From Polytrichum commune (Eukaryota; Streptophyta; Polytrichopsida; Polytrichales; Polytrichaceae), in contig OX485804.1 in the NCBI GenBank assembly GCA_950295325.1, positions 37,744,429 through 37,808,428 of the forward strand: a stretch of DNA of 64,000 nucleotides, read 5' to 3'. Made by a program: the position numbers and the translations under genes. This document shows, in pieces, positions 32,965 to 63,396 of this stretch. The notes beneath the pieces are model-generated. The model did no database searches and had not been told where the DNA came from. It was given only the letters and a program-made list of their open reading frames with translations. Positions within the stretch are counted from its first letter, which is position 1. Each line of letters starts with the position of its first letter.

Positions 32965-33340
32965 GGGCATCGATCAGGTTGCGACGGTCAGCAGGTTCCA
33001 ATGATCTCTGGATCGATCACAAAACTCGGGTGCTATTCAGGATGGAAGAACATATATAGCATAGTGATCAAGTTATGACGTTCAAGTTGCGGAGTGTTTT
33101 CCAGGTCGATGTAATTTAGTACGCCTTACGTTTCATCGAAGATATTCAGAGTTTCGCATGTACAAGTACCACCCTAAACATGTTGCTACACATGTTGCTC
33201 AACAAAATACATCGGAGCCTCACCTCTAAAAACAAAGACTGCCCGTGGATGTTGATGATCACTCGTCCCTTGCCAGAGAAAAGCATTCATCTATATTCAA
33301 TTCATTTTCAAAAGCTGAAATCCACTATTACGTAAATCTA
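32965..33340 (-). pseudogene. Tandem copy A of the GH5 gene 3' end
   Basis: This matches the 3' part of the GH5 gene and its downstream flank: TTCCAGGTCGATGT, CGTTTCATCGAAG and the CATGTTGCTACACATGTTGC flank. It is a roughly 376-bp unit next to copy B. Only the last codons of the enzyme are represented and they are diverged, so it is not functional. Confidence 0.7.
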
Positions 33341-33705
33341 AGACATCAATCCGGCCAAGGCTATGATCAGGAGGTTATAACTATGATGTTCGATTCGATC
33401 ACAATACTCGGGGGTATTCAGGATGGTGGAGCGTAGTATCGTAAGGAAACTCAAGTTGCGGAGGGTGTTCCAGGTCGACGTAAGCACGCCATACGTTTCA
33501 TCGAGGTTATCCACAGAGTTTCACATGCATAAGTACGTACCATCCTACACATATTGCTACACATGTTGCTCAACAAAATAGATCGGTGCCAAACAAAAGC
33601 TGTCCGGGGAAGTTGATGATTGCTCGTACCTTGCCAGAGAGAAGCATTCATTTATACTCAATATATTTTCCAAACGTGAAATCCATTATTACGTACGTGG
33701 GGCCA
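33341..33705 (-). pseudogene. Tandem copy B of the GH5 gene 3' end
   Basis: A roughly 365-bp unit beginning AGACATCAATCCGGCCAAGG, parallel to AGACATCGATCAGGTT at 33706 in the intact gene's flank. On the minus strand it encodes LDETYGVLTSTWNTLRN followed by LSFLTILRSTILNT, which mirrors the true C terminus (LDETYGLLTSTWNTIRN and LNFLTLLRSTILNS). Nothing upstream of that is present. Confidence 0.75.
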
Positions 33706-33759
33706 AGACATCGATCAGGTTTTCATGATCGTAACGAGGCTAGTCGATGTATGAATTGA

Positions 33760-35046
33760 TCACAAAACTCGGCTGCTATTCAGGATGGTGGACCGTAGCA
33801 ATGTTAGGAAATTTAAGTTCCGGATAGTGTTCCAGGTCGACGTAAGCAATCCATACGTTTCATCGAGGTCACGCACACCGTTTCGCAAGTAATAGCTTCC
33901 CTGAAGCCCCCAGAGCGCCCAGTCCTGGTCCGTCTGCTCCAACAATCCAAGCACACATGCTAAGTACCTGCTGTCACCGAAACTCGTCACCGCCTGGTCA
34001 ATTCCAAATTCAGAGAGCAATACAGGTCCAGTGAACACCATGCCATCAGCACGCAAAAAGTTAACCTGATTCTCAACTTCAACTCTATTAACATCGCAAG
34101 GATCAGTGGCGGAGACGTTGTCATAAGAATTAGAGCCTCCGATCCAATTCTTGTACCAGTGAAACTCATACACAAGCTTGTTCTGAAACGCAGATGCGTC
34201 AAGATGGCGAGTAGCAGACAAGAAGCTAAGGTCATGAGCGTAACTCAAACCTCCGACAACGATGAGCACATCAGGGTTTACAGCGTGCACAGCGTGAGCC
34301 GCATTCTGCATGTGTGTGAACCATTCATTGATGTTGTTTTGATCTTGCGATATAACGCCTCGAAGCTCGTTTCGGAGGCTCATGGCTACCACATGTGCGG
34401 TATTGTTGAAAGTCTCGGCAACTATGGTTAACCCTGTCAACCATGTGACGGGGTCAAAATACTCATCTCCAAAGAAACCGTTGCCATCATTATCTGCACA
34501 GCACCATCCAGGTTTGCTCACATGGTTGTCAAGAATCACCATCACTCCGTTGGCACCGAGAATTTCCACGACGGACTTGTGCACATCACGTAGCGTTTGA
34601 AACAGGAAGCTAGGGTTGAATGCTGCAATGCCAACCGCAGCGAAACTGAGGTTGAGGTTGTTGAAGGTTTGTAGAACGGTTGCGGTGCCGTAGGTGTCGT
34701 TCGTCCATAGCCATGTGGAGGAGGTGAGGCGCACGCAGTTGAAGCCGTTTGTGGCGACCAGCTTGGCTATGGCGTCTGCGGTGTTGTGGCTTAACCCTTC
34801 CGGAATGCCGGCTTCCATGTGGCCTGCCCAGTTGACACATGCGAGCTTCACTCGAGTTCCGGCCTGATCTATGATCCATTTGGAAGCTGTTGACAGTGGG
34901 AGCAATGCAGGTCGCCGGATTACCTTTAGTGACGCTCCTTCGGTCTTACCTCCTCCACTGCCATAGCCGACAATGATCAACAGAAATATCGATAACATGG
35001 TAACAAGTTTGATGCATCGCCTTTCCACCTCGAAAATCATCGCCAT
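33760..35046 (-). CDS. Glycoside hydrolase family 5 (plant cellulase-like), secreted
   Basis: A single-exon gene of 428 aa from the MAMIFEVERR start. An upstream in-frame Met at 35202 would add 52 residues, but they lack family character and would bury the signal peptide. Residues 14-28 are hydrophobic (VTMLSIFLLIIVGYG), a signal peptide or anchor. The catalytic domain covers about 45-415. Motifs: VNWAGHMEAGIPEGL (72-85), GFNCVRLT, VILDNHVSKPGWCC (170-183), the acid/base block SLRNELRG with E227, FHWYKNW (295-301), the nucleophile block LLSEFGID with E346, and DWALWGLQGSYYLR (375-388). Both catalytic glutamates are present. The family hydrolyses beta-linked glucans or mannans; the substrate of this plant clade cannot be read from sequence. 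Extra copies of the 3' and 5' ends flank the gene. Confidence 0.9.
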   Translation of the reverse strand: MAMIFEVERRCIKLVTMLSIFLLIIVGYGSGGGKTEGASLKVIRRPALLPLSTASKWIIDQAGTRVKLACVNWAGHMEAGIPEGLSHNTADAIAKLVATNGFNCVRLTSSTWLWTNDTYGTATVLQTFNNLNLSFAAVGIAAFNPSFLFQTLRDVHKSVVEILGANGVMVILDNHVSKPGWCCADNDGNGFFGDEYFDPVTWLTGLTIVAETFNNTAHVVAMSLRNELRGVISQDQNNINEWFTHMQNAAHAVHAVNPDVLIVVGGLSYAHDLSFLSATRHLDASAFQNKLVYEFHWYKNWIGGSNSYDNVSATDPCDVNRVEVENQVNFLRADGMVFTGPVLLSEFGIDQAVTSFGDSRYLACVLGLLEQTDQDWALWGLQGSYYLRNGVRDLDETYGLLTSTWNTIRNLNFLTLLRSTILNSSRVL

Positions 35047-35156
35047 ATTGCAGTAGAACTGATCAGCCAGGTCACAAGGTGGAGAAATCTGACAACCTCT
35101 GCAGTAGATCGAAATGTAATTCCTCAGAGAGAGGAAATATACGATGAGACTGAAAT

Positions 35157-35330
35157 CACGAGCAACAGAAACATCGACACCGTGGTAACAAATTTGAAGC
35201 ATCTAAATTTCAACCTTCAAAACCATGCCAAATTGCATCAGAACTGATCAGCCTGAATATCATAAGGTGGACAGATCTGAAGACCTCTGCATACATCAAA
35301 CTGTGGTCCCTTGGAGAGAGAATTAGAAGA
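35157..35330 (-). pseudogene. Diverged copy 2 of the GH5 5'/signal-peptide region
   Basis: GCAACAGAAACATCGACACC (about 35160) and CAGAACTGATCAGCCTGA parallel the functional gene's ATCAACAGAAATATCGATAA (34973) and TAGAACTGATCAGCCAGG. The ATG equivalent is lost and the reading frame is not maintained. Confidence 0.6.
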
Positions 35331-47230: not shown

Positions 47231-49597
47231 CACAAAATTTCTCGGCGGCCATCGGGTGGCTGGATCACAAAAAGAAAACATTTGTATATGATGACATTCT
47301 GAAGGCTTTGGAATTTTTCCTCCACCAACGTTGAAGATGTGTATCCCAATCAAATGCCATGGAGTGCGGGGATGGTGAGAAATTTAAGTTTCAAATAGGA
47401 GCGCAACCTGCACTCCATTCTAGTGTAATGACTAGGAAAAGTACTATAGATTGAGGGACCTACACTAGGCAAAACCTTGTTCGTAGCTATGGCTTTTTTC
47501 TCGACTTGGTTTGTCCTATGTAACAGTCATTTGCTGCCAATCAAACCAGTCTTTTGTAGCAGATTCAGTAGGTCGCTTTAGATCGCTTTAGATCCGCTCC
47601 CCTGTCCAAATTTCCTGTAATATCTCAAACTGCAACAAATTCCAACAGCAGAATACGATGATTCTAAATATAAAATGCTCATACCAGAGCTTGTGTGGAC
47701 CCTGACCTGAATCCCTTGATAGTATAAAACTCGCTCAATTGAAAACAAGAGTAAATTTGAAGAACTATCATTGAGTGCCCTGAGGATTTACAACGTGAAT
47801 GGGGATGTGATTGATGTCGGTGTGAATGGTCTCGGGAAGAGCTGGAGGCCAAGGAGCTGGAGGCCAAGGAGCTGGAGCAGGAGTTGGGTTCCAGTTTGAT
47901 GGACTGCGATCGCCCTCCATTGGATCTAGCTTCTTATAATAAATATCTCAAACTCCACCCACTGTGACTACTTTTAAAAGATCAAACCATACTATCCAGC
48001 AAATGAATGGTATTAACTGCAGCTTAGAGGTTCAATATCACAAAACAAACATACAAAAATTTCTGTCAACTATCGTCTATGCCATATCACATTAACGATA
48101 TATGACAATCGGTATTTGGGGTCGAGGAGACCCTTGTGGGTTGTATGCCGTTTTACCACTATCGAGCTGTTTCCCACCGTCCATCTTCCTATATAATCTC
48201 AAACTTCCAACAACTCCTGACCCCTGACAACAAGTCTCGGTTATCTTACCAAACAAATCTCTAACTCAGCTGATAATATATAGCTGGAAGTAGTATGTAT
48301 ATGTGAATTATTTTTTGACCGTGAAGCTGACTTACAAGAATGGGGGGATCACTTAATTCACTCTATCCTGAGGAATGACCAAGTAAATTTTGCAATTTGT
48401 GTCGTCTAAGCAACATTGACCTGACATTCCACCCACCCGCACCCTTACACTGTGAACTCGCTCTCTTGAAGTAAATACGAGCACCTCAGTGATTTCTAAA
48501 CAGCTTCTGTTCTTTGCATTCAGGCTTGCAAATTGGGAAACGAGTCATCAATTTCAACAAACAAAATGACTCTCTAAATCAGTCGTCCAGTTTTGCACTT
48601 GCAAACCTCTCACTCGAAGTAGAGAAGAGAATTTCTGACGCTCTTTGCATTGAGGCTTGCAAATTGGGTATGTCGATACGACCTGGCCGAATCAAAGCAA
48701 TGACCCTCCTTAATATAGCACACTTTCGGGCCGGAATTATAATTAATGGATCGAAGATTGTGGTCGACGTCTGCAAAGCTCGACTTGCACATCACGTTCG
48801 TGAGGATTTTGCTGGTCGTCTTGCGAGTTGAAGATGTCAATACACAAGAGAGTAACCCACATGGGCACAAATATGTATCAGATCACTTAGCAGTTTGCTC
48901 ACCACCGGAATGATAAATAAGATGTCTGTAACTCATGTCTGTCTGTACCATTTAATGTGTGTGAAGATAAAAGGTCATAACACAACATTGTTGTGCCGAC
49001 AACTAACAACAACAGAGACGGTAGACACTACAGGCAGCGCAATAGTGAAATTAAAACTATGCGTCCATGACACGCATCATGCAATATTATCCTACCTGAA
49101 TTAAGCGGCCCAATTTTCAAATCATTCTATAATACGTCAGCACCGAACAACATCATCAATCGCCAGCACCACCCTGAAAAACGGTCTTCGGACAATGCAT
49201 GGCACATTGTTCAGAGTAAATTTGAATGTGGACAATTCGGTGTTTAGACCCAGCCATCCATACACTTGCCAAAGAAGTCTCCACAACAAGTCCGTTTGCA
49301 GACCTGTAGACATTTATTCCTCGGCTATGCCAATTAGACCCTGATAGGCTAGGCACTGGTCCCCTGTGGCAACTCCACTGTAACCTCTCCTTAATGTGAC
49401 TCCTTCTCTTATATCCCGAAACCCGAGGGATTGGATGTTCTTAGTTGAAATCTTGCTCCTTGTTGTCATGTTTCCTTTCCATACATCATGGGTTTCGACA
49501 TTAAAATAAACTACACGTTTGCATGCATCACGTTGTCATCATTGTCATTAGTGTTATTATTGCAAAGTTGACTTTGTTTTATTCCATAATGTTGTTG
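47231..49597. other. Gene-poor stretch
   Basis: A small tandem duplication of GAGCTGGAGGCCAAG lies near 47837-47875. TTTGCATTCAGGCTTGCAAA at about 48513 recurs as TTTGCATTGAGGCTTGCAAA at about 48644. The segment around 48140-48200 has distant similarity (CACTATCGAGCT words) to the duplicated blocks at 58.0 and 61.6 kb. The 105-aa open frame at 48514-48831 has no recognisable motif. Confidence 0.35.
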
Positions 49598-49758: not shown

Positions 49759-52470
49759 AAAAAGGTATGAGAAACAATAAGGTTAGAATAAGGCCACAAC
49801 GTTGGTCCGAGAGGGATAAGAGTTATCCCATATTGTTTGTATGAACCAAGGAAAAGAAGAAAATTAATAAAACACAAAGCAAGGAGAGCATGAGACCATC
49901 TCATTCCAAGGATTGTTCATATGCTTGTGCATTCTCATCTCTAGTCCTATTGACTTCCAATAAATGTCACATGCTATACTAATATTTTTTTTATCACGCA
50001 TCCACATTAACACTACCAAATACCTTAATATCATGTGCACTTTGATTGCCACAAGCATGATGTTACAGAGTTTAGAGTGTATCTAAACACAAATTACAGT
50101 AGCCTTATTCAGAAGTGATCTATTTTGCAAGTGTGTAAAGTGGGTTTCATATTCTCTTTAAACAACGAACGCTACTATCATTCTTTTATGGATCAAAAGT
50201 AGATACGATGGCTCATAGGTTGGGATAACCATATAGTCAATGCTCAACACCCGCTCGACACTAATCGCTTTGTGTACACCCACTTTATTAACCACTTACA
50301 GATATTGGGTATCTGAGTATTTGCTCAAATTTGAATATCAATCAAAAGTTGACATTTTGTCATGTCAATCTCATTCTTGTGGAATTGGATTCGTACATTA
50401 TATCTTGTTGTCTACTATATTACTATTATTTCTAAAAAAGTTATTGCACATGAGAAGAGACAAAACCTTCTAATTGAAAATGTCGCAAACTTTACCCTGG
50501 GCACTCACACAGTCAACGTCTTTAGACCTTGATTTGGAGTTGTTAAAACATTTTTAAGAAGCATTGTTTTGCATCCGATTTCACATTATCAAATTTTAGG
50601 ATTATCGATTCTAAGAAATTTCACTAAAAGTAGAATTCTAACACCTAGGGTCTCTACATCAATGTACGAGGAGTACTAACGTTTAGTTACGAGCTAGCCG
50701 AATTTTTTTGGAGATTTTTGAATGAGTTCGCAATGATTCGGACGAGGTACCGATGTAAAATTGTCGAGGTCGGCAATCAATTGGTTCAAGGGAGAATAGA
50801 CCGGCAATATGGCTGGTTGAGGCATCATAGTTCAGGATATTTACCGAGTTGATTTTTAAAATTTAGGCAAGTAGCCGGAGGGACTAGGGATAGGACATAA
50901 ATGTTACTAGGGTAATACTAGAGTCATGACTCATAAGGTCAAAACCATGGAGGTTGATTTATGGTTGGTTATGTTGTCATTAGGCCGATTAGGGTTTTGA
51001 GGCTCTAAGCAGCCAGGGACCCTCTCTCACAAGTATAAGAAGAGTTTGAGCCCCTTGGGCAAAGTACCTCACTCCTCCATTAGGGTTTTTTCTCTCTACC
51101 CCATTCCTGCTCTAAGCTTCCACTTCTGCTCTTGTATTTTCAGTTGATGTTTTCAAGCTCCGTGTTTGGCTTCAAGCTTAGTGGGTAGCTTCTGATCTTG
51201 CACCACTTGTCAATCTCATTCAAGGGTACATTGAATTAAATGCTAAAATGCTAGTTTTTTTTCTTCATCTTTTCTTTTGGTTTTGCAATTGTGGGTAGTA
51301 GTAGTTATGGTGATTGTGGCCATGTCTTGACAATAGATGGATTGTAGGTTGAGTGATGATATTCGTGGATGCATGGAGGTTCGAGGACCATTTATGCTAG
51401 ATTTTCATGTTGGTGGGTTGATTCTAAGGTGTGGGTGCTTATGGTGGTTCGGGGGATCACATTCGGGTGTCGGTTGTGAGTGATTCCAGGCCTACTGGGT
51501 TGGAAGCAATAATTTGGAAGCTATTCTTAGAATTGCTTGGGAGGGGCCATATGAGAACTTTGATAATATCATTGAAGAGGCAAATCCTTTGTGGGAAAAT
51601 GGAACTAAGTACCGGCTCCTATATATATGCCAACCATTCATGTTATATATATGTCTTCTGCAAGTGACGCTTTTTGTTCAATAACTTCAATTATGTTCCC
51701 AATTCTAAGATTGTCAATTAGTTTCAAGGTTGCATGTGTTGTCGTACTAACCAACCTCTAAAAAATGTATGCACCCTCTTTGGATCCATACATCTCTCAA
51801 AGGCTACATTCTTGGCCCCAGGATGGTGGGGGGCTTGGCAAGGTTCAACTCCTTCCAAAGATACTTGGGATTTCTTTCAACACAAATACACTCCCTTAAA
51901 AGCAAACTGTACCACCAATTTCATTATATATATATATATATATATAAATATAAAATCCGACTTAATATACTTAACTTCGGAAATATACCGAAGTAAAATT
52001 TAGAAACCACGCAAATTGCCAAATGGTAAAGGTAAATCTCAGAATTTTACCCCCCCCCCCCCCCAAAAAAAAAAAAAAACTGGCTTTCGGTAGCTTCCGA
52101 GTGAAAAGAAAACAATCCAAACCGTTTTATAAAAGGTAGGAAATGCACCGATTTTTGTATAGAACTCCCTGGACTGTGCTCCAAATAAGAGCATCCTTCC
52201 TTCCCTTCCTTCCCTGCCTGTCGCTTAACATACATGAGATATAAGTTATACCACCGACAAAAGAAGCAGCGTGACACTCTTCTTCATTGCTGATGGCCAA
52301 TTCAAGGCCACATTGAGCACTGGGATTGAAAATTCCACAACCAAGTGCATGGTTACCGCAGACCACGACAAGTCAAGTCACTGCATGCTCTGCGGTCGGT
52401 GGGTCGGTCGTGTGCGCTTCGTAATTCCCGAGGCTGTTCACGGCGGCTTCTTCATATATTAACTACAGTA
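49759..52470. other. Gene-poor stretch, possible decayed LTR-like segment
   Basis: Around 50930-51240 a segment resembles a promoter/leader (TATAAGAAGAG, then a pyrimidine-rich leader starting near TTAGGGTTTTTTC). It could be an LTR, but I found no partner LTR, primer-binding site or coding domain. A C-run followed by an A-run lies at 52051-52079, and a (TA)n run near 51925-51945. Confidence 0.3.
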
Positions 52471-52707
52471 GGACCGATCGGATCCTTCTCGAATGTTCTT
52501 GAAAGTTCCGAGAGAGCGAGGGTGGGTTCTTGAAGGTTCTGAGAGAGGGTGGGTGGGTTCTTGAAGGTTCCGGAGAGGGTTCCGATGTGGCACCAATGAT
52601 AGGTAAACTTGACCATCTGACGCAGGCTGTTGGGCCTTAGGGTGCAGACATGCATGCTGGTGGGGAGAGGACACGTCCTTTGCCACCGAACGTTTTAACT
52701 TAACTTA
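52471..52707. repeat. HSE-bearing repeat, unit A
   Basis: Begins GGACCGATCGG. It shares with units B and C the HSE, the words GATGTGGCACC, ACTTGACCATCTGACGCAG and GGGTGCAGACATGC, and an end of the TTTGCCACCGAACG type. It continues after the inserted element at about 53222. No coding function is recognised. Confidence 0.75.
52486..52570. promoter_or_regulatory. Cluster of perfect heat-shock elements (unit A)
   Basis: 52486-52508 has five alternating TTC/GAA blocks each separated by exactly 2 bp, a perfect five-unit HSE. Two further three-unit HSEs (TTCTTGAAGGTTC) lie at 52527-52539 and 52558-52570. This spacing is the consensus for heat-shock factor trimers. Whether the sites are used is unknown. 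Confidence 0.7.
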
Positions 52708-53218
52708 GGGCCCCTTCACACACGAGACTGAGAGCCCGTGAGCATTACGCTTCAAGCACTCTCATTGGTGGAATGGGCGGATCGAGTCCAAGTTCGCTTC
52801 ACACTACGTTTGAGGGACCGACGGAGTATGTGAATGCAAGATGGATGTAGAGTCTACATGGATTCCGACATGGCATCGAATGGATCATGTTTCATGGTCA
52901 CTTGGATTATTTTCAAAAACCACTTCTTGGAGGTAGGCCTAACTAACACAAAACCGTTGGGAAACCATAGCACTTCGAACGCTCACGACCGTTGGTTTAT
53001 TGTATTTTATCATGTGTGACGACCCAAATGAATAGAGATTCGTTGAAATAGCATTTGGTTGAGGGCCCGATCACATAGGACTTCACACTACACTTGAGGG
53101 TCCGAGACCACACCTCATGAGTTTGGAGGTGTGTTGGGACGGCCTTTGGACACTTTCTTTTCTTTTGGACTCTCACACTTTCATGGTCACGGCTCTTGGC
53201 TCGTGTGTGAAGTGGCCC
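52708..53218. mobile_element. Tourist-like (PIF/Harbinger) MITE, 511 bp
   Basis: The left TIR GGGCCCCTTCACACACGAG and the right-end reverse complement GGGCCACTTCACACACGAG continue for about 30 bp. The flanking 3-bp repeats are TTA at 52705-52707 and 53219-53221, typical of PIF/Harbinger. Removing the element and one TTA restores the sequence CTTAACTTATAACTTA, which is found uninterrupted in unit C near 54396-54411. No transposase is encoded. Confidence 0.8.
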
Positions 53219-53221
53219 TTA

Positions 53222-53475
53222 TAACTTAATCCAGTCAACTTCATGGCCACCACCTCAATCACTGCCTGGGAAGCTTTTGGGCATAATATATAGTCGGTCA
53301 GCATCCTAGCTAAGTTAGTGATTCTAAATCCAGCCGGCCACATGTTGACATCATCTTCTGGTTTTGCTTTCATTCATTCGAGGTATATTCCTCTATAGAT
53401 TCCTCTAAAATGATCGGTAGTTCTCCTGAAGTCTCCATCTTCAACCGGTTATTTCTCAAACTCAACCGGTTCAAA
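53222..53475. repeat. Dispersed repeat block shared with 8380-8640
   Basis: After the end of unit A this block carries the CCACATGTTGACATC and TTCCTCTAAAATGATCGGTA sequences found near 8.4 kb, ending in ACTCAACCGGTTC just before unit B. Confidence 0.45.
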
Positions 53476-53640
53476 CCTTCCTTCTCGAATGTTCTTGAAA
53501 GTTCCAGAGAGGGTTCGGATGTGGCACCGATGATAGGTAACTTGACCATCTGACGCAGCGTGTTGGGCCTTAGGGTGCAGACATGCTGCTTGGGAGAGGA
53601 CCCATCCTTTGCCACCGAACGCCCTAACTTGACTTATTGA
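53476..53640. repeat. HSE-bearing repeat, unit B
   Basis: A perfect five-block HSE lies at 53482-53504. It is followed by the same GATGTGGCACC, ACTTGACCATCTGACGCAG and GGTGCAGACATGCTGCTTGG order as the other units. This unit is uninterrupted and directly abuts unit C. Confidence 0.75.
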
Positions 53641-54412
53641 TGGACCGATCCTTCCTTCTCGAATGTTCTTGAAAGTTCCGGAGAGGGTTCCAATGTGGCA
53701 CTGCTGATACTGTTCTCCCTCTTTCTTATGACACGTTTGGGAAACACAAAAAAGGGGGTCGTATTATCGAGGTGTCATCGCCTCATTAGTATGACAAATG
53801 GGGTAAACTAGTCGTATTATTGAGGGGAATACGGAAACATAAGTAACGTGAGCTTTGAAATATAAACAACGAGTCCAAGCAATATAGATTGGTATGAATT
53901 AATAACTCATAACTCCAAACAAATACAAATATCCTCAAGAACTCTTGAAATACGAGTCCAAAGAAATCTCGTGTTGCAGGCCACTCTAACCCTGACCATG
54001 TCCGTTCTACATTAGTAACCCTAATTCTCATTAAGTTCCCAATGATAAGTGAAGTTCCCAAGTAGTTCCCAAGTGAGAGTGGATGTATTTTAGATGTACA
54101 TAACGTAGATGAAAGGGATTTTAACATTAACTACCTCTTCAATATGACAAAACAAAGATTCTAAATGTCGCATTATCGAGTGTCGTAGTCGTATAATAGA
54201 GGGGGTTTTGAACTAAAAAGTTTGGTCTCGCAAAAAAGCGTCGTGATATCGAGGGTGTCGTATATATGAGTGTCGTATTAACAAGGTTAGACTGTAGGTT
54301 AACTTGACCATCTGACGCAGCCTGTTGGGTCTTAGGGTGCAGACATGCTTGCTGCTTGGGAGAGGACCCATCCTTTGCCACCGAACACGCCCTCACTTAA
54401 CTTATAACTTAT
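53641..54412. repeat. HSE-bearing repeat, unit C, split by a pogo-like MITE
   Basis: The left half 53641-53709 holds a perfect five-block HSE (53656-53678). It breaks off at GTGGCACTGCTGATA. The right half resumes at 54295 with TAGGTTAACTTGACCATCTG and runs to the end of the unit. In units A and B the equivalent point reads GATAGGTAA with no interruption. Confidence 0.8.
53710..54294. mobile_element. pogo-like MITE, short copy, TA target duplication
   Basis: A 585-bp element with imperfect TIRs (left CTGTTCTCCCTC with TATGACAC; right-end reverse complement CAGTCTAACCTT with ATACGACAC), flanked by TA on both sides. Homologous to 7591-8347 but internally deleted. Subterminal ATTATCGAGGTGTC words occur in both orientations. 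The precise target (GATA then GG) is preserved in units A and B, so the insertion boundaries are well supported. Confidence 0.8.
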
Positions 54413-54416
54413 TTAA

Positions 54417-54726
54417 GGTAGAGGTGCCAATTTCCGTGCGGGTCCTTAAACCGCTCACTAGACCTATCCAAACAAGAGGTACATTATAGCTTCCAACCTC
54501 AAATTTCTATGTAATCATGGTGTACATTTTAGGGTGAGTGGTTTTGGGTACCCCTACGAGTTCTCCTTCCAAAATTCATAACTAATTCAATATTAATCCA
54601 AAATTAATTATTCCAATTGGTCCAATTTCCAATGTACTTTGCACATCTTCCAAGATTGATTGCCCCTTAATAACTCCCCAATGAACATGCCAATCCGAAA
54701 TTCGAGCGGGAATTGGCACCTCTACC
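54417..54726. mobile_element. TTAA-flanked MITE, about 310 bp
   Basis: The left TIR GGTAGAGGTGCCAATTTCCG and the right-end reverse complement GGTAGAGGTGCCAATTCCCG are near-identical. TTAA lies immediately outside both ends (54413-54416 and 54727-54730). A TTAA duplication is the signature of piggyBac-type insertion. As TTAA is palindromic, it could instead be the outermost part of a longer TIR with a different duplication. No coding capacity. Confidence 0.6.
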
Positions 54727-54730
54727 TTAA

Positions 54731-56819
54731 GTCTTGATGATGGTCACGCGCTTATGGGTTTAGGGTTTAGGGAGTCGTGGCATAAAAGAGCAACCCGGCC
54801 CTCCCTACATTGCCTCCTCAATATCTAGGAACGTTGTTTTGGGCCTGCTGCTCTTGGGACGCAGACACGCTGTGGGTCGTCATGGCCTAAGGGAAGGACT
54901 CCTAGGGTATGTGGGGAATGGTTTTCCTATTCATTGTTGGCTAATCCCGCGTGCTCATTTTGCACAACTTTCACATATCGTAGAGGGCTATCTTGTTCAA
55001 CACTTCAATGGGTACCGGTATGTGGAGTTCATGTCGGAATATGTAGGGTGCTCGTATATAGGGTGTCGAGCATGTGACGACAATGTATCGTGTCAAAGTA
55101 GGTATGCAACTATAGGGTATCTACCGCAATGTATTATGTCAAACTACATACGCAAATATGGTATGTCTATTGCAAAGTTTCAATACCTCGTATATCGAAA
55201 GAGAGACAACCCTTGAAAGTTTTTTTGTCACTCAATTCTTGAGAGTAGGAATGGGCTTGAAGGGGTTACCTCTCTCTTGATGATCGGTGGAAAACAAGGA
55301 TTTGAAAACATTTGATGATTATATATAAAAGAGGCTCTGAGACGGGACCTTTTGTGAATATTGGCTCGTCTAAGGGTTGGTCCACATTTGTGGGAAGTCG
55401 CTGCCCAAGGGTCTTATCATGCGTCAAACTTGCCAAGAATCATGGATCTTTCAATCCAGGATGCAATTGGTGCTTCAAATGTGGTAGTTTTTAGTATCCC
55501 ATTGTGGTCCATAATGGACAAGTACATAATATAAGGAGTTTGCTCATTATAAAGCAAAACTTGTAAAAAGTTTTCAGGGGTTTTTGTGGGATGAGCATGC
55601 CCTTTCAAAAAAAAACTAAAAAATTAAAAACAATTAAAAACAATTATTGAGATAATCATTTTTCAATGACCACATAGTTGCTATAACATTTTTCCTTGAT
55701 TGGTTTCAAATGCAATACTCATTGAATGGGGCATGGGCTCATGGAGCACGTCCATCCACTTTTGGCTCACTATTATGGAGTTATTATAGGCTATTTAAAG
55801 ATTTTTCAAGGAAATTTGTATCATGGCCGCACAAATTTTTTAATGTTGTCCTTGACAAAATTTTCACATGACTTCAAGTTATTACAATGCAAACTTGAAG
55901 GACAACTATTTGCTATATTTCAATATGGTTAATATACTATAAGCAATACAAAACTAGAACAAAGACATATGGTATTGCTTGTATTTATTTTCCAATCCTT
56001 TTAAGTTGTTCTCCAAGAACTGGTCATTGAATCTTTGACCGCTTCCAAATGATCAGATCACTATTGTGCATGCATCAACCCTTCTAAAAAACTTCAAAAA
56101 AAAACTTGGAGTATTTGGTGTCATTTTGAGTTCAAATCACTCATATTTCATTTACCGTATATTCAAGGAGGGTGCACATATTCCATTTACTCTTTTGGCG
56201 TGGGTTGTGTTCTTGTACAATGTGTCACGCTTTCCAAAATCTAAGGGTAAATGATCTTCAATAGGCTTCTAGCTAAATAAAATGGCTAAGTTTCTTTGCT
56301 GAAATGTTGAAAGTGCAAAAAGGCTTGGGGTTTTGCACTTCTTTGTGCTAGAGTCCAAATTTATAATCAAGGAAATACTCCTCGCAATTAGCAGCTGATT
56401 TTGTAAAATTTTAAAACATGGTACTAATTGTAGCATATTTGTTACTCTCTCTATCCCAAAATGATTGTTTGTGTTTCTAGCTTCAGCGAGATTAAGGTCC
56501 GCTAACCATTGACCAAGTAGTTGTAAGTATGACTCTTAAAATAGAAAAATTTCCAAAACACCCCTGGAAGTTGCGGTGTCAAAAGACTTCTTGATATAGA
56601 AAGTTTGGCACAACAATATTTGATTTTGAGCCTCAAATTTCTAGCTAGGCAGATAAACCGGACAATCATTTTGGGACAGAGAGAGTATAAAATAAGAAAC
56701 CAAATGAACACTTCTCCAATGCAAGGCCTAGCATTCAACACCTAAGAGAATCGTGTTCATTCTTAGTAGGTCATCAACTCCTTGTTATGTCAAAATCAAA
56801 TCTCACATTAAGTTGGCCT
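54731..56819. other. Gene-poor stretch
   Basis: The longest open frame, 54839-55216 (125 aa), shows no recognisable domain and no splice context. CAAAAAGG- and A-rich tracts occur. No element boundary was found. Confidence 0.35.
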
Positions 56820-62150: not shown

Positions 62151-62980
62151 GCACATGCATTTTAATTCCAGGAATTTGTTGGTGAATTTCGTGCTTATCC
62201 TGCCCCGAATGGATCGTCGTAAGTTACAGGAAGGCGGGCATTTTCAAACTGATGTTATATATCAAATGTTAGTTCCGACGTGGAAGCTGCATACGATAGG
62301 ATAATTAGAAAGTTAAGTTGTTTGGCTAAGGGCATGATAAATTAACCGGGCCCTCCGAACCGTTGAAGCGTCTGCAACATCAACAATCACAGTCGGTAGG
62401 AAGTTTCTCACAACATTCAATCGGCTTTCTAGGGTTTTGGAAAGCAAACATAACCAAGCTGTATGCTCATCTCAGCAATATTTGGATAATCATTTCACAT
62501 GTGATTGTCGGACATGGTGGCCTTAGGGATTGACAAGTTGGATTCATGTGATGAGAGGCTGACGCATGCAATTGAGTCGACAAGTACTAACTTGCAAGCC
62601 TTGTTTCGATCATATCACTCGCCATACATGAATCGCGGGTGACAAAAATTCGGTCGGGTCGGTTGGTTGCACGAATTCGACTCACATCCATCCATCCATC
62701 CCCGCCGTATCAGGGCGTGTGCAGACAGACAGCATACACCTGCCTTGAATGCTACCTGCCGACGGTAGTTTCACCCGCCGGCGTGTCCACGTGGAAAGTT
62801 TCAAGTGCCGCGAAACCTCACCGCCACCACCGATTCCGTCACACCACCGAGAGTATAATTGTGGTGGCCTCCTTCGCAGCTGCGTGAGTAATAAGAAATT
62901 GCTCGTGACTCCTAAAGGATGTTCACCGGAATTGAGCAGCAGCTGCCGCAAAGGAGGCCCGGTAGCACTCTTCATGTGAT
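62151..62980. other. Gene-poor stretch, GC content rising to the right
   Basis: No supported coding region. A CATC iteration lies near 62687-62700 and CGCC-rich sequence at 62750-62850, higher in GC than the rest of the window. Confidence 0.35.
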
Positions 62981-63034
62981 GCAATCAATCAATCAATCAA
63001 TCAATCAATCTCTCTCTCTCTCTCTCTCTCTCTC
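62981..63034. repeat. Compound (AATC)n-(TC)n microsatellite
   Basis: CAAT repeats from about 62982 to 63010 run directly into a CT run to about 63034. Confidence 0.9.
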
Positions 63035-63143
63035 GCATAATTTTTCCCCGCTCGCAGGTTGGCCAATGAAGTCGGAAGACGTTAAATACCCCCCCACGAA
63101 CTTATAGGGGGCACCTCTGACAGGTACAAGACTGCCCGCGAAG

Positions 63144-63151
63144 TGACGTCA
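63144..63151. promoter_or_regulatory. bZIP/CRE-type palindrome TGACGTCA
   Basis: A perfect 8-bp palindrome in a GC-richer segment with CATCCACTCCAC iterations (63165-63198). It could belong to a promoter, but no gene is seen within the window downstream. A second TGACGTCA lies inside the SET-gene MITE near 12038. Confidence 0.3.
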
Positions 63152-63396
63152 GCAGTGTCCAGCCGTCCATCCACTCCACTCGACGTTCATCCACTCCACG
63201 TCCGCGTTGAAGGCGTCCTCCAGACCTGCGTAGCTAGGATTTAGTACACGACATTGACATATACTAAGATCCTTTATACATTTATACATACAATGTTATA
63301 TACACAATGTTACAAGTATAGGGTACTGTATATCCAGTTCTGCATCTGTTGTTCTGTATACCCATATCTGTACACCCAGACCCAGTTCTGCATATG

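What the first reader, a model, noticed from the sequence alone, without database searches (positions are those of the whole stretch)
52471..54412. Repeat family carrying perfect five-unit heat-shock elements in every copy
Three copies of one repeat each carry five alternating TTC/GAA blocks at exact 2-bp spacing (52486-52508, 53482-53504, 53656-53678). Unit A has two more three-unit HSEs created by local reduplication. Conservation of the motif in all copies, with divergence around it, suggests either a heat-responsive mobile element (compare HSE-bearing LTRs of ONSEN-type elements) or a duplicated heat-shock promoter. I know of no named family with this sequence.
Basis: partly seen in the sequence, partly recalled or inferred. 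Interest (0 to 1): 0.75.

Follow-up and report, generated by a model that had tools for sequence, protein, structure and literature searches.

The report
Local cluster of strong heat-shock elements
Three neighbouring copies of one short piece of apparently non-coding DNA in a plant-like genome each carry an unusually perfect binding site for the heat-shock switch protein; they look like local duplicates rather than a jumping element, and whether they switch anything on in heat is not known.

Summary
The motifs are real: three exact five-unit HSEs (TTCTCGAATGTTCTTGAAAGTTC) and two three-unit HSEs at the stated places. The mobile-element reading is not supported for this sequence: a search of the 408-Mb assembly with the unit found only this locus. 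It is a local triplication, later cut up by short dispersed repeats. At two insertions the target duplications are visible and another copy of the unit shows the empty site. All three copies keep the HSE, but copies differ by only 7-11% and the spacers are unchanged too, so evidence for constraint is weak (P = 0.024 for those 23 columns; a shuffle test of run length gives 0.44). No gene was recognised close by. The exact HSE runs are longer than in the 16 HSP20/HSP70 upstream regions sampled, and this is the only one of 12 non-LTR loci with more than one exact five-unit array. Most likely: a single-copy HSF-binding promoter or enhancer, possibly decaying; close rival: a chance motif multiplied by duplication. 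Elsewhere the genome does hold an ONSEN-like case: a Ty3/Gypsy chromodomain LTR family with five-unit HSEs in 15 of 20 long LTR matches.

The parts
52471..52706 (.). copy A of the HSE unit (its tail continues after the insertion at about 53222-53235)
   Evidence: self-comparison and three-way alignment
52486..52508 (.). exact five-unit HSE of copy A
52527..52539 (.). three-unit HSE made by a 31-bp tandem duplication
52558..52570 (.). three-unit HSE made by a 31-bp tandem duplication
52453..52462 (-). TATA-like TTAATATATG, 23 bp from the HSE of copy A; candidate core promoter reading leftward
   Evidence: read from the sequence; function inferred
52185..52470 (.). low-copy flank, 48.6% G+C; no scored genome match reaches beyond about 52188
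   Evidence: (40 of 136 candidates scored)
52708..53218 (.). dispersed TIR element inserted in copy A, target duplication TTA at 52705-52707 and 53219-53221
   Evidence: TIRs; 39 long genome matches at 87-89% and one at 83%; empty site seen in copy C; coordinates
53260..53473 (.). dispersed repeat of about 214 bp, lacking the right-hand end seen in most other copies compared
   Evidence: (2550 first-look candidates, 40 scored)
53474..53640 (.). copy B of the HSE unit
53482..53504 (.). exact five-unit HSE of copy B
53641..53709 (.). copy C of the HSE unit, first part
53656..53678 (.). exact five-unit HSE of copy C
53710..54294 (.). dispersed element splitting copy C, target duplication TA at 53708-53709 and 54295-54296
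   Evidence: 1797 first-look candidates, 40 scored; junctions
54297..54412 (.). copy C of the HSE unit, second part
54413..54730 (.). dispersed element with 24-bp inverted ends at the right edge of copy C
   Evidence: 255 first-look candidates, the 39 other scored copies 94-96% identical
50660..52184 (.). dispersed element of about 1.5 kb at the left edge (ends approximate)

Best explanation
A single-copy intergenic HSF-binding locus. Shown: one segment of about 170 bp headed by a five-unit HSE was copied to three neighbouring places; copy A has two more three-unit HSEs from 31-bp duplications (about three helical turns); later insertions of unrelated dispersed repeats cut the array. Inferred: heat-activated HSF trimers bind these arrays cooperatively and act as a promoter or enhancer. 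The likeliest output is a non-coding transcript reading leftward from copy A through the TATA-like site at 52453-52462. The locus may be the leftover of a once tidier heat-shock promoter.
For: Exact arrays in all three copies, each with a sixth unit one base off. Runs of five exact units, against a longest exact run of 1, 2 or 4 in the 16 HSP20/HSP70 upstream regions sampled. The only one of 12 non-LTR loci with more than one separate five-unit array. Zero changes in the 23 aligned columns while 20 of 134 ungapped body columns vary. The copies and the left flank are richer in G+C (0.49-0.53) than the surroundings (0.39-0.41). A TATA-like site 23 bp from the HSE of copy A; that plant heat-shock promoters have HSEs close to the TATA box is recalled, from no call.
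Against: No Pfam gene recognised nearby. The codon model gives no clear gene between 48 and 62 kb; its best ORF there (8.4, overlapping copy A itself) lies above the top score of 4 of 5 simulated windows and below the fifth (11.3). Conservation is marginal: P = 0.024 for the 23 columns, 0.089 for the 15 core columns, and the spacers are kept too; shuffling all columns gives an invariant run as long in 44% of trials; the body has its own 20-column invariant run. If one mismatch per unit is allowed, the gap to HSP promoters shrinks: 5 units in 2 of 16 against 6 in the window. The locus is full of insertions, as neutral DNA would be. No expression or binding data were available.
Confidence: 0.4

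Rival explanations
1. Chance motif, multiplied by local duplication, with no function. One ancestral five-unit match arose by accident and the copies are simply too young to have lost it.
For: All three arrays descend from one event. Five control matches stand against 12 non-LTR loci, so perhaps four in ten of these loci are accidents. Copies differ by only 7-11%, the spacers are as invariant as the core, and an invariant run of this length turns up in 44% of column shuffles. No gene recognised nearby.
Against: Five exact units plus a sixth with one mismatch, and extra HSEs in copy A at a 31-bp period. Zero changes in those 23 columns has P about 0.02 under the rate of the body.
Confidence: 0.38
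2. The HSE core was seeded by the HSE-bearing Ty3/Gypsy LTR family of the same genome (by recombination or filler DNA) and then duplicated with its new neighbourhood.
For: In the best register the eight spacer bases match those of the window array at 6 or 7 positions in 10 of 15 LTRs, against at most 4 in the 11 other non-LTR loci. The best local alignment spans 38 bp with 32 identities, beyond the 23-bp core.
Against: The other 5 LTRs match at only 3-5 of 8 spacer positions. Nothing else of the LTR was found in the unit. HSF base preferences beside the core could give the same spacers. Many registers and copies were compared, and no significance was computed.
Confidence: 0.12
3. Promoter of an undetected protein gene with short exons, or of a gene outside the window.
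For: A telomere-like motif at 54756-54772 and a weak TATA-like CATAAAAG at 54781-54788, with low-copy DNA to the right, look promoter-like. Codon scores of 11.9-13.4 at 47.8 kb and up to 12.6 at 62.6-63.2 kb could be coding.
Against: In 59 + 85 ORFs scanned around the locus the only Pfam scores were weak: five families at E 0.004-0.04 and one at 0.013, each in one ORF. Between 48 and 62 kb the best codon score is 8.4, while the GH5 gene scores 29.5. No HSP20 or HSP70 match in the window.
Confidence: 0.08
4. Heat-responsive mobile element.
For: HSEs in every copy of a repeat.
Against: No copy found elsewhere in the 408-Mb assembly. No inverted ends around the unit. The dispersed repeats present are different sequences; of 22 copies of the 214-bp repeat compared with the window one, only L020, which was fetched because it has an HSE, carries one of three or more units.
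Confidence: 0.02

Closest known systems
ONSEN/COPIA78 and other heat-responsive COPIA elements of Brassicaceae (PMC3907296, PMC5059998; passages read)
   Same: HSE (HRE) arrays that an HSF can bind; duplication of a proto-HRE is described for ONSEN.
   Different: Those are dispersed LTR retrotransposons; this unit was found only here and shows no LTR.
Helitron-borne HSEs of Caenorhabditis (PMC6927752; abstract and outline seen)
   Same: HSEs outside classical heat-shock promoters, next to mobile DNA.
   Different: Here the HSE-bearing unit itself is not dispersed; the inserted repeats in the window show no exact HSE of three units of their own.
HSF1-activated satellite III and other stress lncRNA loci (PMC9032817; passages read)
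   Same: Tandem non-coding DNA with HSEs that could be transcribed on heating.
   Different: Three copies rather than megabases; transcription unknown.
HSP20/HSP70 upstream regions of the same genome (16 sampled)
   Same: HSE-type arrays upstream of genes.
   Different: Longest exact run 1, 2 or 4 units; window 5 units, three times; no HSP gene attached.

Membership tests
ONSEN-type HSE-bearing LTR retrotransposon | dispersed copies in the genome | tested here: not met
   four matches, all in this locus
ONSEN-type HSE-bearing LTR retrotransposon | HSE inside an LTR (TG...CA, paired), with gag/pol between | tested here: not met
   no similarity to the LTR family outside the HSE and a few bases beside it; no retroelement domain in the ORFs scanned around the locus
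ONSEN-type HSE-bearing LTR retrotransposon | transcribed on heating | not testable with these tools
   no RNA data
Non-autonomous DNA element (MITE) | terminal inverted repeats around the HSE unit | tested here: not met
   the two inverted-repeat pairs of 14 bp or more found at 52400-54800 bound other segments; shorter ends not tested
Heat-shock gene promoter | perfect HSE array of at least three units | tested here: met
Heat-shock gene promoter | TATA box close to the HSE | tested here: inconclusive
   TTAATATATG on the minus strand, 23 bp from copy A; by eye none directly beside copies B and C
Heat-shock gene promoter | a downstream gene | tested here: inconclusive
   none recognised by Pfam or clearly by codon use, no HSP20/HSP70 in the window; short-exon or non-coding genes would be missed
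Heat-shock gene promoter | heat induction through HSF | not testable with these tools
   needs RNA or binding data

The most novel reading that the evidence does not exclude
An HSF-driven intergenic heat locus in a plant: HSEs donated by a heat-responsive Ty3/Gypsy LTR family were captured in single-copy DNA, amplified by tandem duplication into an array stronger than the heat-shock gene promoters sampled here, and now drive a non-coding heat transcript or soak up HSF.
Probability: 0.06. Interest if true: 0.6.

Novelty: new member of a known kind. Interest (0 to 1): 0.35.

Why it matters
If bound and active, it would be a plant example of very strong HSEs away from any recognised heat-shock gene, with a readable history of growth by duplication and break-up by transposons. 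The by-product may matter more: a chromodomain Ty3/Gypsy family whose LTRs carry long perfect HSE arrays upstream of a TATA-like box, whereas the HSE-bearing plant families in the passages I read (PMC3907296, PMC5059998) are COPIA; PMC5059998 also reports heat-responsive GYPSY elements in Arabidopsis, without HSEs in the passages I saw.

Tried and rejected
Mobile-element origin of the unit: not supported by the genome search. The 214-bp dispersed repeat beside copy B as carrier of the HSE: rejected. Of 22 copies compared with the window one (20 fetched of the 54 match rows, plus window 8.3-8.6 kb and L020), only L020 has an HSE of three or more units, and L020 had been fetched for its HSE. Derivation of the whole unit from the LTR family: rejected outside the HSE and a few bases beside it. 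A protein-coding unit: rejected, because the copies differ by frame-breaking indels and no domain was found. HSP20 and HSP70 neighbours: none in the window. Rfam at gathering thresholds: no match in the window. tRNA genes by ARAGORN with the bacterial code: none.

Limits: the genome search scores at most about 40 candidates and skips very common words, so copy numbers are lower bounds or rough first-look counts, and N stretches are unseen. In one search the 40 scoring slots went almost wholly to the 52708-53218 element, so I repeated 52095-52480 alone. Pfam scans covered 59 ORFs from 40-64 kb (50 of the 53 ORFs of 75 aa or more, plus nine shorter), 56 of the 86 ORFs of 75 aa or more left of that, and 85 of the 105 ORFs of 40-74 aa in 47.5-58.5 kb listed; of the 20 left out, eight were already in the first set and most others lay in inserted repeats. 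In one search one further ORF gave a weak DUF1431 score (E 0.0007), not followed up. The codon model was trained on only 3043 aa and compared with five simulated windows. HSP yardstick: 10 HSP20 and 6 HSP70 upstream regions, chosen from 26 and 43 match rows; some may not be heat-inducible. For the LTR family I counted the 20 matches of 322 bp or more and left out the 22 shorter rows. No other plant genome was available, so conservation between species is untested.

Full report
Observation. Two hundred windows simulated with the same first-order statistics held none of four or more units. In the whole assembly (408 Mb, 64 contigs; the window is G000:C2:37744429-37808428) the exact five-unit pattern gives 60 overlapping matches against 5 for the pattern read backwards. 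Sorted by position they fall in 15 LTRs of one retrotransposon family and 12 other loci, of which this is the only one with more than one separate array.

Not a dispersed family. The unit 53476-53640 matched only this locus (four matches, the query included). Self-comparison shows copy A at 52471-52706, copy B at 53474-53640, and copy C split between 53641-53709 and 54297-54412. Over 134 ungapped body columns A and B differ at 15, A and C at 15, and B and C at 10.

History. The gap inside copy A is a 511-bp dispersed element with 20-bp inverted ends and a TTA target duplication; copy C still shows the empty site. Thirty-nine long matches across the genome are 87-89% identical and one 83%. The gap in copy C is a 585-bp dispersed element with a TA duplication. 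A 214-bp dispersed repeat lies between A and B and lacks the right-hand end present in most other copies compared, so the A-B junction was probably rearranged after it inserted. A 318-bp element with 24-bp inverted ends bounds copy C on the right; its 39 other scored copies are 94-96% identical, so its family is the youngest of those seen here. A 1.5-kb dispersed element bounds the locus on the left. These look like ordinary short transposon-like repeats; family names (PIF/Harbinger-like for TTA, Tc1/mariner-like for TA) are my inference from recalled target-site habits and are not tested.

Is the motif kept by selection? Twenty of 134 body columns vary, so the chance that 23 given columns all stay the same is 0.024, and 0.089 for the 15 core columns alone. 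Against this, the eight spacer columns, which HSF does not strictly need, are also unchanged, the body has an invariant run of 20, and when all columns are shuffled a run of 26 or more appears in 44% of trials. This is weak evidence at best. In copy A a 31-bp tandem duplication added two three-unit HSEs.

Strength. In 16 upstream regions of HSP20 and HSP70 genes of the same genome the longest exact HSE run was 1, 2 or 4 units (4 in 2 of 16); the window has 5, three times. With one mismatch allowed per unit the HSP regions reach 5 units in 2 of 16 and the window 6.

Surroundings. Around the locus the Pfam scans gave only weak scores: five families at E 0.004-0.04 in 59 ORFs and one at 0.013 in 85 ORFs. 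A GH5 cellulase gene at 33763-35202 is the nearest gene recognised. The codon model ranks that gene first (29.5). The best ORF between 48 and 62 kb scores 8.4 and overlaps copy A itself; the top scores of five simulated windows were 6.9-11.3, four of them below 8.4. Higher scores lie just outside, 11.9-13.4 at 47.8 kb and up to 12.6 at 62.6-63.2 kb. No HSP20 or HSP70 match falls in the window. The low-copy stretch left of copy A (52185-52470) has 48.6% G+C and a TATA-like TTAATATATG on the minus strand 23 bp from the HSE. This is the best candidate for a core promoter; it is an inference.

The ONSEN idea elsewhere in the genome. The pattern search uncovered a Ty3/Gypsy family: three copies (L006-L008) have LTRs of about 350-380 bp, 5.6-5.9 kb apart. 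In L008 the ORFs between the LTRs hit protease, reverse transcriptase, RNase H, integrase and chromodomain models; ORFs outside them hit COPIA gag and pol models, so this copy seems to sit inside a COPIA element. In coding orientation the HSE array lies upstream of a TATATATA stretch (read from the alignment, ORF strand). Of 20 long LTR matches 15 carry an exact five-unit array, and six pairs are spaced as whole elements. LTR pairs within the three elements are about 91-94% identical, so these copies are not young. The ONSEN papers (PMC3907296, PMC5059998; passages read) describe HSEs in COPIA elements; PMC5059998 also reports heat-responsive GYPSY elements in Arabidopsis. Putative HSEs are reported in LTRs of a fungus (PMC12810828; passages read). 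My searches for Gypsy or chromovirus elements with HSEs listed no paper whose title or abstract start names such a plant family; I did not read the listed reviews, and only open-access text is held. The spacers of these LTR arrays resemble those of the window array (best register 6 or 7 of 8 in 10 of 15 LTRs, 3-5 in the other 5, at most 4 in the 11 other loci) and one alignment spans 38 bp; common origin of the core is possible but not shown.

Verdict. The sequence observation stands; the mobile-element reading is not supported; the promoter-like reading is possible and untested. I give 0.40 to a bound, heat-responsive regulatory locus and 0.38 to a chance motif copied by duplication.

Noticed in passing
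L006, L007, L008 and 14 other LTR matches on C1, C2, C3, C4, C6 and C7 of G000: Ty3/Gypsy chromodomain LTR family whose LTRs carry exact HSE arrays of five or more units (15 of 20 long LTR matches) upstream of a TATA-like stretch: a probable heat-responsive retrotransposon, ONSEN-like in layout but not COPIA.
   Followed up: partly
L020:2034-2056 (G000:C3:2066333-2066355): One copy of the common 214-bp dispersed repeat has an exact five-unit HSE where the other 21 copies compared have none of three or more units.
   Followed up: partly
L024 (G000:C7:8286161-8286193): Seven consecutive HSE units next to an ORF with leucine-rich-repeat matches.
   Followed up: no
window 54756-54788: Telomere-like GGGTTTAGGGTTTAGGG just right of the inserted element, followed by a weak TATA-like CATAAAAG: promoter-like, no gene recognised.
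   Followed up: no
window 33763-35202 and 33082-33869: GH5 cellulase gene on the minus strand with a 361-bp tandem repeat overlapping its 3' end.
   Followed up: no
G000:C4:28809773-28811513: The 214-bp dispersed repeat is arranged head to tail here in seven copies about 260 bp apart.
   Followed up: no
window 47791-47964 and 62591-63241: Short ORFs with codon scores above most simulated maxima (10.5-13.4), one beside a 15-bp tandem repeat; possible exons or composition effects.
   Followed up: no
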